From Patulibacter minatonensis DSM 18081 (GTDB taxonomy: Bacteria; Actinomycetota; Thermoleophilia; Solirubrobacterales; Solirubrobacteraceae): a stretch of 37,805 nt of DNA. Both the position numbers and the translations under genes were made by a program. Below the pieces are notes generated by a model. It ran no database searches. It was not told where the DNA came from and saw only the letters and a list, made by a program, of their open reading frames with translations. How positions within the stretch are numbered: the stretch's first letter is position 1; each line of letters starts with the position of its first letter. The DNA is taken from positions 2,053,850-2,091,654 of the forward strand of contig NZ_KI912613.1 of assembly GCF_000519325.1 (NCBI RefSeq), read 5' to 3'. Below, in pieces: positions 8,676 through 13,885 of this stretch.

Positions 8676-9676
8676 ACGACCGTCTGACGATCTCCACCCC
8701 CGAGGCCGTCGACGTCGTGCTCGACCTCGCGGGACCGGGCACCAGGATCTCGAGCGGCGCGATCGACCTGGTCATCCAGGGGCTCGTGGCCCTCGTGGGG
8801 CTGCTCATCCTCGGGGGGCTCAACGACGCGATCGGCGACGACTGGACGATCGTCCTCGCCTCGATCCTCGCGTTCCTGCTCCTGTTCTTCTACGACGTCG
8901 CCTGGGAGCTCCTGGGCGACGGCCGCACGCCCGGGAAGATGATGCTCGGGCTCCGGGTGGTCCGCGACGACGGCCGCCGCGTCGACCCCGGCTCGTCCGT
9001 GCTGCGGAACCTGCTGCGGATCATCGAGCTGCCGCTGCTCTACGCGCCCGGGATCATCATGGTCACGCTGACGAAGCGCCACCAGCGGCTCGGCGACGTC
9101 GTGGCGGGCTCGCTCGTCGTCCGGGAGCCGCGCCGCGCCACCCGTGCCCTCGGCCGGACCGCCGGGGCCCCGGACCCGTGGGAGGGCGGGGGTCCGACGC
9201 TGCAGCTCGACACGTCGGCGCTCACGGACCACGACCGGTCGACCGCCCGGGCGTTCGCCGCCCGCCGCGAGACGCTGGACCCGAAGGAGCGGCTGGCGCT
9301 CGCGACGACGATCGCGGCGGGGCTGCGCTCCCGGCTCGGCGTCGTGCCGGGACGGGCGACGGACGAGGACGTGATCCTCGCGGTCGCGCGGGGGACGTCG
9401 CACGACGGCGGCGGGCTCGGCGCGGGGTGGGGGCCGCCGGACGGACGCTGGGCGTCCCCCGAGGCCGGCGGGCTCGACACGACCGGCCTGACCGACCACG
9501 ACCGCACCACCGCGCGGCAGTTCGCCGAGCGCCGCAGCAGCCTGGCGCCGGGGGAGCGGGACGCGCTGGCGACGGCGATCGCCGGCGGGCTCCGTGCGCG
9601 CCTGCGGTCGACCGGCGGGATCGAGGCGGACGAGGAGCTCGTGCTCGCGGTCGCGCGGGACGCCGGCGCGCGCTGA
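8663..9676 (+). CDS. RDD family membrane protein with duplicated C-terminal motif
   Basis: The protein has 337 residues. GTG at 8663 is preferred because a -10-like TAGGGT ends 7 nt upstream and the protein then begins as family members do (MQEYHDRLTISTPEAVDVVLDLAGPGTR). The RDD domain spans about residues 15-150 with three hydrophobic segments, the RISSGAIDLVI opening motif and DGRTPGKMMLGLRVV. The cytosolic tail holds two copies of a 44-residue helical motif (starting at residues 182 and 271, LDTsaLTDHDRsTAR then FAaRR and ALATtIAaGLR), 31 of 44 positions identical. An upstream GTG at 8627 would add 12 residues. The function of RDD proteins in these loci is unknown. Confidence 0.88.
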   Translation: MQEYHDRLTISTPEAVDVVLDLAGPGTRISSGAIDLVIQGLVALVGLLILGGLNDAIGDDWTIVLASILAFLLLFFYDVAWELLGDGRTPGKMMLGLRVVRDDGRRVDPGSSVLRNLLRIIELPLLYAPGIIMVTLTKRHQRLGDVVAGSLVVREPRRATRALGRTAGAPDPWEGGGPTLQLDTSALTDHDRSTARAFAARRETLDPKERLALATTIAAGLRSRLGVVPGRATDEDVILAVARGTSHDGGGLGAGWGPPDGRWASPEAGGLDTTGLTDHDRTTARQFAERRSSLAPGERDALATAIAGGLRARLRSTGGIEADEELVLAVARDAGAR

Positions 9677-10296
9677 GGCGATGAGCCCACGACGCCGCCG
9701 AGCGCCCGGCCGAGCAGCCCGCCCTCGGCGAGGATCGCCAGGCCCAGCGCGATCAGCACGACCGGCACCGCGACGTGCCCCCACCGCGCGACCGTCCGCG
9801 CCACCGGCGGGCGGGCGGCGAGCCACCGGGCGCCCGCCAGCCAGACCGCGAGCAGCACCCCGAAGGTCAGCACGACGACCAGGGCGTCGGCGCCGTCCTG
9901 GTTGGCGAGGAACGGCACGTACACCGCGATGTTGTCCGCTCCCCCGGCGATGGTCAGGGCGGCGACCGCCGCGGTGCTCGAGACGAGCGGCAGGGCCTCG
10001 TCGCCGGCGTCGCCGCGCAGGACGGCCGCCACGCCGAGCATCCCGAGCGCCAGCGGCACCAGCCCGAGGAGCGCGACGACGTCGTCCGGGAGCAGGAGGA
10101 GCCCGGTGGCGCCCAGCCACGCCACCGCGACGAGCGTCGTCAGGCCGAGCGCCTGGCCGCCGACGACGTGCCGGACGCGGAGCGGGCCACCGCGCCCGGC
10201 CACCGCGAAGAGCGCCGTCAGCACGACGACGTCGTCGAGGTTCGTGGCCGCGAACGCGCCGGCGGCGGCCGCGGCGACGCCGACGGGATCGCTCAT
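9040..10296 (-). CDS. CadD-like cation permease with long antisense run-on
   Basis: The first ~205 residues (10296 down to about 9682) form a complete CadD/cadmium-resistance-type permease. ATNLDDVVVLTALF is near the N-terminus, with an RHVVGGQALGL loop, the paired motif ADNIAVYVPFL and a last helix VPVVLIALGLAILAEGG. No stop follows in frame. The frame continues some 210 codons, antisense to the RDD gene, with Ser/Pro/Arg-rich sequence typical of an uncoded opposite strand. Either a stop was lost and the product has a junk tail, or a sequence error or programmed event ends it near 9680. The start overlaps a mini-ORF (ATGA at 10293-10296). Substrate (Cd2+ or another cation) is not determined. 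Confidence 0.6.
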   Translation of the reverse strand: MSDPVGVAAAAAGAFAATNLDDVVVLTALFAVAGRGGPLRVRHVVGGQALGLTTLVAVAWLGATGLLLLPDDVVALLGLVPLALGMLGVAAVLRGDAGDEALPLVSSTAAVAALTIAGGADNIAVYVPFLANQDGADALVVVLTFGVLLAVWLAGARWLAARPPVARTVARWGHVAVPVVLIALGLAILAEGGLLGRALGGVVGSSPQRAPASRATASTSSSSASIPPVDRRRARSPPAIAVASASRSPGARLLRRSANCRAVVRSWSVRPVVSSPPASGDAQRPSGGPHPAPSPPPSCDVPRATARITSSSVARPGTTPSRERSPAAIVVASASRSFGSSVSRRAANARAVDRSWSVSADVSSCSVGPPPSHGSGAPAVRPRARVARRGSRTTSEPATTSPSRWWRFVSVTMMIPGA

Positions 10297-10340
10297 CGGA
10301 CGGTCCGCGGGGCCGGAGGACGGTGGGCGGTGTGCGTCAT
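10293..10340 (-). CDS. 15-codon bridging mini-ORF between PAP2 and CadD genes (candidate)
   Basis: Its ATG overlaps the PAP2 stop (ATGA, 10340-10337) and its TGA overlaps the CadD-like start (ATGA, 10296-10293). The peptide would be MTHTAHRPPAPRTVR. The CadD-like gene has no Shine-Dalgarno sequence of its own, so delivery of ribosomes by this mini-ORF is plausible. Twelve of 15 sense codons end in G or C. It may be fortuitous. Confidence 0.3.
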   Translation of the reverse strand: MTHTAHRPPAPRTVR

Positions 10341-11149
10341 CGCCTCGCCCGCGCAGGCACGAGCAGCACGACCGTCACCACCGCGACCGACAGCCCCAGC
10401 AGCCATCCGGCGAGCACGTCGGTGGGGGAGTGGACGCTGAGGACGACCCGGCTGAGCCCCACGAGCAGGACGATCAGGGCCGCGACGAGGAGGGGCCACC
10501 GCGGCGGCGCCTGGGCCGGGCGGTCGGGGGCCGACTCCGACGACCGTCCCGTCCACCGTCCCGCGACGGCGACCACGAGGCCGAGCGTCAGCCACCCCGC
10601 CGCCGCCTGCATCGAGTGGCCGGAGGGGAAGCCGCTCGAGTGCTCGACGACCTCGTGCAGCGCGGCCGGCGGACGCGGGCGGCCGACGATCGACTTCGCG
10701 AGCGGGACGAGGAGGACCGCCGCCTCGAGCGCGATCAGCGGCCCGACCGCTGCGCGGAGCGGCAGCACCCGGAGCACGAGCAGGCCGACGCAGAGGGCCA
10801 CGAGGACGACGGTCAGCACGAGCCCTGCACCGAGGTGCGTGACCGCGCGGGCGAGGTCGACGACGGTCGTCGAGCGGTGATCGGCGAGCTCGCGCACCAC
10901 GTCCGCGTCGAAGCGGGTGACGGCGTTGTGCCCGCGGACGATCACGGCGAGGAGCGCGGTGATCACGACGCACGCGGCCACGAGCGGGAACGGGCGGCGC
11001 AGGACGCGGGGCACGGCGAGGGAGGATCGCAGCCGCGACGGGTGGCGGCGGCGCTCGTCGTCGGGCGGCGGATCCCGGCCGGTGCCCGGGCCCGCCGTGC
11101 TCGCCGGCCCGGGGCGCGCCCGGGGCGTGCGTACGATCACAGGAGGCAC
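10337..11149 (-). CDS. PAP2-family membrane phosphatase
   Basis: A 270-residue protein with a Pro/Arg-rich cytosolic leader (1-50) and about six transmembrane helices. It carries the complete PAP2 active-site triad of motifs: KSIVGRPRP at 152-160, PSGHS at 175-179, and SRVVLSVHSPTD with R234, H240 and D244. Enzymes of this family dephosphorylate undecaprenyl pyrophosphate or phosphatidic-acid-type lipids at the outer face of the membrane; the substrate here is not defined. The GTG start at 11149 lacks a clear ribosome binding site; a second in-frame GTG occurs three codons later. The gene is divergent from clpB and shares its 177-bp promoter region. Confidence 0.88.
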   Translation of the reverse strand: MPPVIVRTPRARPGPASTAGPGTGRDPPPDDERRRHPSRLRSSLAVPRVLRRPFPLVAACVVITALLAVIVRGHNAVTRFDADVVRELADHRSTTVVDLARAVTHLGAGLVLTVVLVALCVGLLVLRVLPLRAAVGPLIALEAAVLLVPLAKSIVGRPRPPAALHEVVEHSSGFPSGHSMQAAAGWLTLGLVVAVAGRWTGRSSESAPDRPAQAPPRWPLLVAALIVLLVGLSRVVLSVHSPTDVLAGWLLGLSVAVVTVVLLVPARARR

Positions 11150-11167: not shown

Positions 11168-11196
11168 TTGACTTTCTACGAAGCGAAGCGCAAAAT
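11168..11196 (+). promoter_or_regulatory. clpB promoter (TTGACT-17-CAAAAT)
   Basis: A -35 box TTGACT at 11168-11173 and a -10 box CAAAAT at 11191-11196 are separated by exactly 17 bp. The stretch is conspicuously AT-rich for this genome. The predicted leader is about 125 nt before the TTG start. It resembles a vegetative sigma-70 promoter. Confidence 0.6.
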
Positions 11197-11217
11197 CTCA
11201 GTGACACAGACTGAGAT
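11195..11217. promoter_or_regulatory. HAIR-like heat-shock operator upstream of clpB
   Basis: A perfect inverted repeat ATCTCAGT-N7-ACTGAGAT that overlaps the last bases of the -10 box. The HspR operator HAIR known from Streptomyces and mycobacteria is CTTGAGT-N7-ACTCAAG, with the same 7-bp spacing and the same inner AGT/ACT ends, but the outer half-site bases differ. Position and geometry fit repression of clpB by an HspR homologue; the variant half-site is inferred to be a lineage form. Confidence 0.6.
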
Positions 11218-11326
11218 CTAGGAGCGCGGAGCGCCCGGGAGGGCGACGACGCGGCCCGGACGTCCGTCCGCGGCGCTCCGGTCCGGGGCCGATCCCCCGC
11301 ATCCTCCGTTCCCGAAAGGACACCCA

Positions 11327-13885
<2,559 letters not shown>

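What the first reader, a model, noticed from the sequence alone, without database searches (positions are those of the whole stretch)
11168..11217. Variant HAIR operator overlapping the clpB -10 box
ATCTCAGT-N7-ACTGAGAT is a perfect inverted repeat with the spacing and inner AGT/ACT bases of the HspR operator, but outer bases differ from CTTGAGT-N7-ACTCAAG. It overlaps a TTGACT-17-CAAAAT promoter, ideal for repression. A lineage-specific HspR code would be new.
Basis: partly seen in the sequence, partly recalled or inferred. Interest (0 to 1): 0.55.

Follow-up and report, generated by a model that had tools for sequence, protein, structure and literature searches.

The report
Variant HspR heat-shock repressor operator
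A mirror-image DNA switch in front of the protein-repair gene clpB is very probably where the heat-shock repressor HspR binds, written in a variant 'spelling' that is shared by other heat-shock genes of this bacterium and its relatives and that blends into the textbook spelling.

Summary
Confirmed and extended. ATCTCAGT-N7-ACTGAGAT (11195-11217) sits on a TTGACT-17-CAAAAT promoter 109 bp before clpB. It is conserved: 21 of 28 relatives' clpB genes carry it, six of the other seven follow hspR directly, and one is a divergent copy. In 31 genomes the pattern ATCTNAGT-N7-ACTNAGAT (up to 2 mismatches) hits 61 sites against 5 for the reversed control; all 29 sites with 0-1 mismatch lie before heat-shock genes (clpB, lon, a ClpB-like gene, hsp20, groES, dnaK). 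In the window's own genome the sites are at clpB, lon and dnaK; groES has CIRCE boxes instead, the same HspR/HrcA division of labour as in Streptomyces. The genome has a single HspR gene, in the dnaK operon. Hybrid sites, one half ATCTNAGT and the other HAIR ACTCAAG, occur, one at this genome's own dnaK. So it is an HspR operator with ACTNAGAT half-sites in place of ACTCAAS. The spelling is not confined to one lineage and tracks HspR HTH/wing residues (suggestive, not proof). Binding, heat induction and the specificity residues are untested. A new variant of a known kind.

The parts
11168..11173 (+). -35 box TTGACT of the clpB promoter
   Evidence: sequence; TTGAC[AT] kept at the same 17-bp spacing in 6 of 6 congeneric clpB promoters
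11191..11196 (+). -10 box CAAAAT of the clpB promoter; its last two bases are the first two of the operator
   Evidence: sequence; CAAAAT kept in 6 of 6 congeners
11195..11202 (+). left operator half-site ATCTCAGT (reverse complement of ACTGAGAT)
11203..11209 (.). 7-bp operator spacer GACACAG; probable transcription start region (inferred from the -10 position)
   Evidence: sequence; 7-bp spacing kept in relatives
11210..11217 (+). right operator half-site ACTGAGAT
11314..11320 (+). probable ribosome-binding site GAAAGGA of clpB
   Evidence: read from the sequence; not tested
11327..13885 (+). clpB, ATP-dependent disaggregase, the regulated gene (TTG start)
   Evidence: TIGR03346 1314.1 bits against a cut-off of 1232.1; Pfam

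Best explanation
The dyad is the operator through which the MerR-family heat-shock repressor HspR, encoded 13 kb away in the dnaK-grpE-dnaJ-hspR operon, holds down clpB. An HspR dimer binding the 23-bp site would cover the end of the -10 box and the start of transcription and so block RNA polymerase. When heat titrates or unfolds HspR (with its co-repressor DnaK, as described for mycobacteria) the site is freed and clpB is transcribed. The site is a variant of HAIR: same 7-bp spacer and same inner ACT, but outer half ACTNAGAT(TT) in place of ACTCAAS(TTT). Shown here: sequence, conservation, the shared regulon, the single HspR gene, and hybrid half-sites. Inferred: binding by HspR, repression, release by heat.
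For: Conservation: clpB sites of at least 11/14 in 21 of 28 relatives (random-window null 0.5%), at least 12/14 in 16 of 28 (0 of 5000 random windows). Regulon: 61 sites against 5 reversed-control sites in 31 genomes; all 29 sites with 0-1 mismatch precede heat-shock genes (14 clpB, 7 lon, 3 ClpB-like, 2 hsp20, 2 groES, 1 dnaK; read by hand across). lon sites of at least 12/14 in 12 of 21. dnaK: ATCT-N15-AGAT in 33 of 33 promoters of families f1-f4. HspR: NF047375 110.8 bits against a cut-off of 105, in the dnaK operon; a strong match in 30 of 31 genomes, one per genome except for a weak second match in G010. Identity with HAIR: hybrid sites ACTTGAGT-N7-ACTGAGAT (G015 clpB), ATCTTAGT-N7-ACTCAAGT (G031 dnaK), ATCTGCGT-N7-ACTCAAGG (this genome's own dnaK). 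The dnaK/clpB/lon set is the HspR regulon of S. coelicolor (PMC2687793, passages). The Arg that corresponds to M. tuberculosis R29, implicated in HAIR binding (PMC10415612, passages) and placed by me in the QTLR motif from the recalled M. tuberculosis sequence, is in the QTLR of 117 of 121 HspR sequences (the other four did not fit the search pattern, at least three of them being mis-extracted frames).
Against: No binding or expression data. groES of this genome lacks the site (it has CIRCE). This genome's proximal dnaK site matches only 11 of 14 specified bases and its left half is reduced to ATCT. lon sites of 12/14 are missing in 9 of 21 genomes. HspR passes its NCBIfam cut-off by only 6 bits.
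Confidence: 0.9

Rival explanations
1. The dyad is bound by a different dimeric repressor (another MerR-type protein or an unrelated heat-shock regulator) that took over the HspR regulon in this group.
For: The half-site differs from HAIR at three of seven positions; the genome has other candidate MerR-type proteins (20 first-look candidates for NF047375, only HspR passing the threshold used). Binding has not been shown.
Against: HspR is kept in the dnaK operon; hybrid HAIR/variant sites and a graded series of half-sites across the phylum fit one changing protein better than a replacement.
Confidence: 0.06
2. The inverted repeat works as RNA: a 5'-end hairpin of the clpB mRNA (stability element or thermometer), not as DNA.
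For: An 8-bp perfect inverted repeat lies at or near the inferred start of transcription; in several relatives it lies 4-20 bp before the start codon.
Against: In dnaK promoters the -10 box lies inside the dyad, so the left half would not be transcribed, and the halves are no longer complementary beyond ATCT/AGAT. In other families the left half is fused to the -35 box.
Confidence: 0.02
3. Chance dyad or promoter-associated sequence with no regulator.
For: Perfect 8-7-8 dyads of any composition are expected 4.5 times in a window like this.
Against: Conservation and regulon specificity: 61 sites against 5 control sites, all 29 sites with 0-1 mismatch before heat-shock genes.
Confidence: 0.01

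Closest known systems
HspR/HAIR of Streptomyces (CTTGAGT-N7-ACTCAAG; minimal 5'-TTGAGYN7ACTCAA)
   Same: Inverted repeat with 7-bp spacer and inner AGT/ACT; targets dnaK operon, clpB and lon; groES left to HrcA. Consensus and regulon from PMC2687793 (passages) and PMC6102357 (passages).
   Different: Half-site ACTNAGAT(TT) instead of ACTCAAG; position 4 free (G, C, T or A); canonical TTGAGT-N7-ACTCAA found nowhere in this genome at 0-1 mismatch.
HspR/HAIR of Bifidobacterium (AAAsTTGAGysw-N6-CTCAAsTTTT)
   Same: Palindrome with A/T-rich outer flanks; dnaK and clpB as targets (PMC9004370, passages).
   Different: CTCAAs in place of NAGAT; also proposed at clgR.
HspR 'HAIR-like' sites of Helicobacter pylori
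   Same: A divergent inverted repeat similar to HAIR is essential for HspR binding and repression (PMC6102357, passages), so divergent sites are known to work.
   Different: Extended 70-80 bp sites, partly acting with HrcA; the letters of its repeats were not compared here.
HrcA/CIRCE
   Same: Inverted-repeat heat-shock operator; HrcA and CIRCE boxes at groES are present in this genome.
   Different: TTGGCACTC-N9-GAGTGCCAA: different letters, different spacing, different target.

Membership tests
HspR operator (HAIR) | Inverted repeat with 7-bp spacer and inner AGT...ACT | tested here: met
HspR operator (HAIR) | Half-site letters CTTGAGT/ACTCAAG | tested here: not met
   clpB half ACTGAGAT differs at positions 4, 6 and 7; no TTGAGT-N7-ACTCAA with 0-1 mismatch in the genome, 3 places at 2 mismatches, one of them at dnaK. 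Hence 'variant', not canonical HAIR.
HspR operator (HAIR) | Located at promoters of dnaK operon, clpB and lon in the same genome | tested here: met
   clpB exact, lon 1 mismatch, dnaK proximal degenerate and distal hybrid sites
HspR operator (HAIR) | HspR protein encoded in the genome, in the dnaK operon | tested here: met
   NF047375 110.8 bits, cut-off 105; dnaK-grpE-dnaJ-hspR gene order read in L101 (grpE and dnaJ named from reading, dnaK by PF00012); one copy
HspR operator (HAIR) | Bound by HspR in vitro or in vivo | not testable with these tools
   needs EMSA, footprint or ChIP
HspR operator (HAIR) | Controls heat-inducible transcription | not testable with these tools
   needs expression data
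CIRCE (HrcA) | TTAGCACTC-N9-GAGTGCTAA-like repeat | tested here: not met
   clpB site has other letters and a 7-bp spacer; true CIRCE boxes found at groES instead

The most novel reading that the evidence does not exclude
The HspR recognition code is not fixed as HAIR. Across the phylum it moves between ACTCAAS and ACTNAGAT half-sites, through hybrid sites, in step with substitutions in the HspR HTH and wing (TRLYS with AGAT, RRYS with AAS), and with the left half-site fused either to the -35 box (CTTGACA) or to the -10 region (ATCT...). The Streptomyces HAIR would then be one branch's version of a wider operator family whose specificity switch could be pinned to a few residues.
Probability: 0.55. 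Interest if true: 0.62.

Novelty: new variant of a known kind. Interest (0 to 1): 0.5.

Why it matters
HspR is the central chaperone repressor of many actinobacteria, M. tuberculosis included, yet no HspR structure turned up in the Protein Data Bank sequence search (only GlnR, TnrA, CueR and other MerR relatives) and the operator rule rests on a few cultured lineages. A natural series of operator spellings paired with their repressors, including hybrid sites in one genome, makes the DNA-recognition code of HspR directly testable and lets HspR regulons be predicted where a HAIR search would miss them, as it would at clpB and lon here.

Tried and rejected
Canonical HAIR in this genome: only 3 places at 2 mismatches; one proved to be half of a hybrid dnaK site. 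HspR control of groES here: rejected, two CIRCE boxes. RNA hairpin reading: rejected on the dnaK architecture. A wide ClpB scan over all bacteria (80 loci) gave only one further clear site, in a Solirubrobacterales MAG (L018, 14/16); it mainly told me the likely order of the host. A first random-window null was contaminated by loci fetched because of the motif and was replaced. In one search the 'col M' test used a wrong index and is void; retests that column. In one search, 24 of 121 HspR sequences were dropped by a strict anchor, so its column ranking is superseded (107 genomes). Literature: HspR with Thermoleophilia 0 papers; HspR with Rubrobacter 1, off topic by its title and abstract start; HspR with RegPrecise 3, seen in the listing only; broader HspR searches showed no title or abstract start about this variant. 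The library holds only open-licence PMC papers, so subscription work is unseen. A text search for CTTGAGT was useless.

Full report
What is there. The window is part of a 5.52-Mb single-contig genome. The nearest named ClpB in the genome-contig scan is from a Solirubrobacterales MAG at 68% identity, which carries the same site, ATCTAAGT-N7-ACTTAGAT, so the host is probably of that order (inference). Between a divergent PAP2-type gene and clpB lies a TTGACT-17-CAAAAT promoter whose -10 box shares two bases with the dyad ATCTCAGT-N7-ACTGAGAT at 11195-11217. Dyads of this size are not rare in such GC-rich DNA (6 seen, 4.5 expected), but this is the only one with A/T-rich arms.

Conservation at clpB. 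I read the DNA before clpB in 28 of 31 genomes, this one included (G002, G006 and G012 were left out because one search gave no clpB start for them). With N at position 4, 21 of 28 reach 11 of 14 specified bases (null 25 of 5000 random 300-bp windows) and 16 of 28 reach 12 (null 0 of 5000). Six of the other seven (G011, G021, G024, G027, G029, G030) have clpB directly downstream of hspR (coordinates; upstream sequence), so they would need no operator of their own. The seventh (G010) is a divergent copy near a second dnaK. In the genus the promoter letters are kept with the dyad in 6 of 6.

The regulon. ATCTNAGT-N7-ACTNAGAT with up to 2 mismatches gave 61 sites in 31 genomes; the reversed pattern gave 5. 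I assigned the 29 sites with 0-1 mismatch by hand: 14 clpB, 7 lon, 3 ClpB-like genes, 2 hsp20, 2 groES, 1 dnaK, none elsewhere (two of them, G012 hsp20 and G016 ClpB-like, are shared with a divergent reading frame). Of the 32 sites with 2 mismatches I count 16 at such genes and 16 not assigned to one. In the window's own genome the list is clpB (exact) and lon (G000:C1:416513-416535, 83 bp before the start). The Lon assignment rests on PF02190, 37.4 bits against a cut-off of 28.7. Lon sites of at least 12/14 occur in 12 of 21 genomes with a findable Lon N-terminus.

dnaK. All 33 of 33 dnaK promoters of families f1-f4 hold ATCT-N15-AGAT, typically ATCTGCCA-TACTNNN-ACTCAGATTT. There the -10 box (CATACT, after TTGGCT-17) lies inside the dyad; the right half is complete and only ATCT of the left half survives. 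At 10 of 14 or better, 28 of 29 pass (null 2.4%). The window's genome has a second, distal dnaK site, ATCTGCGT-CCCCGGG-ACTCAAGG (L101:836-858), half variant and half canonical HAIR. groES has CIRCE boxes in this genome and in nearly all relatives read (not seen in G020, whose upstream stretch I could not place), HrcA is present, and three relatives (G017, G023, G026) add an ATCT-type site before groES. This repeats the Streptomyces scheme: HspR for dnaK, clpB and lon; HrcA for groES (PMC2687793, passages).

Who binds it. HspR (NF047375) is found at E <= 1e-14 in 30 of 31 genomes, over the cut-off in 29; G010 has a weak second match and G006 none. In this genome it is the fourth gene of the dnaK operon. 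Hybrid sites tie the variant to HAIR: G015 clpB ACTTGAGT-N7-ACTGAGAT, G031 dnaK ATCTTAGT-N7-ACTCAAGT, and the own-genome dnaK site. A looser count over the clpB, dnaK and lon promoters gave 38 variant-variant, 12 HAIR-HAIR and 26 mixed sites, many of the mixed ones with the left half fused to the -35 box as CTTGACA.

How far the spelling goes. I read 129 dnaK promoters over the class and phylum; the 100 regions fetched for this cover most but not all of the class and phylum hits. Scoring the dyad without looking at half-site positions 6-7, 117 of 129 gave a call; of these 73 are GA (AGAT type), 29 AG or AC (HAIR type) and 15 other. AGAT dominates f1-f4, f7, f9, f21, f22, f27 and f29 and is the single call in f15; HAIR type holds in f11, f12, f17, f23, f26, f28, f30, f33, f36 and f37; f5, f6 and f8 are mixed. 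So the spelling is not confined to one lineage.

Does HspR change with it? The residue before YS in the wing is R in HAIR-type genomes and mostly L in AGAT-type ones: among 93 genomes with both calls, non-R/GA 62, non-R/A[GC] 3, R/A[GC] 23, R/GA 5 (Fisher p 5.5e-14, not corrected for kinship). On a DnaK tree of 107 genomes a dependent-evolution model beats the independent one for that residue (LR 19.4, p 6.6e-4). Over 53 columns the best are YE[Q] (3.6e-5), the M of MIS (8.6e-5), wing T (1.3e-4), GL[I] (4e-4) and wing L (1.2e-3), but 21 of 53 columns have p < 0.05, so the test is liberal. The operator type changed 8 times by parsimony (200 shuffles: minimum 17) and the wing residue 5 times. 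I treat this as suggestive co-evolution, not as an identified determinant.

Mechanism. Most likely an HspR dimer on 11195-11217 blocks polymerase at the end of the -10 box and the start of transcription, and is released on heat shock. The release mechanism (HspR unfolding and loss from DnaK and HAIR) is from mycobacterial work (PMC10415612, passages). Binding, repression and heat response are inferred here.

Verdict. The new part is the altered half-site, the regulon built on it, the hybrids, and the matching drift of HspR. It is a new variant of a known kind.

Noticed in passing
L420, before groES (match G000:C1:1076238-1076516, - strand): Two CIRCE boxes (TTGGCACTC-N9-GAGTGCCAA and TTGGCACTC-N9-GAGTGCCGA) before groES; single HrcA gene at G000:C1:4846687-4847355.
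   Followed up: partly
L101:836-858 and L101:942-964 (G000:C1:2047735-2047757 and 2047841-2047863): Two dnaK operators: a distal hybrid of variant and HAIR half-sites, and a proximal degenerate one with the -10 box inside it.
   Followed up: yes
L229, L227, L228, L230: A ClpB-like ATPase with a cysteine-rich N-terminus (CxxC pairs) carries the same operator in four relatives; in G016 the site is shared with a divergent MsrA-like reading frame (named from its sequence, not tested).
   Followed up: partly
L421-L425, about 20 bp before the lon operator: A conserved block around CCTGCGCTA before the lon operator in congeners, possibly the lon -10 region.
   Followed up: no
window 11327: clpB starts with TTG in this genome where most relatives have ATG.
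   Followed up: no
L101:6851-6950: A masked run of N lies about 1.4 kb downstream of hspR; not pursued.
   Followed up: no
window 10340-11149 (-) and 9043-10296 (-): Genes divergent from clpB: a PAP2-type phosphatase and a cadmium-resistance-type transporter; the operator could in principle also affect the first of them.
   Followed up: no
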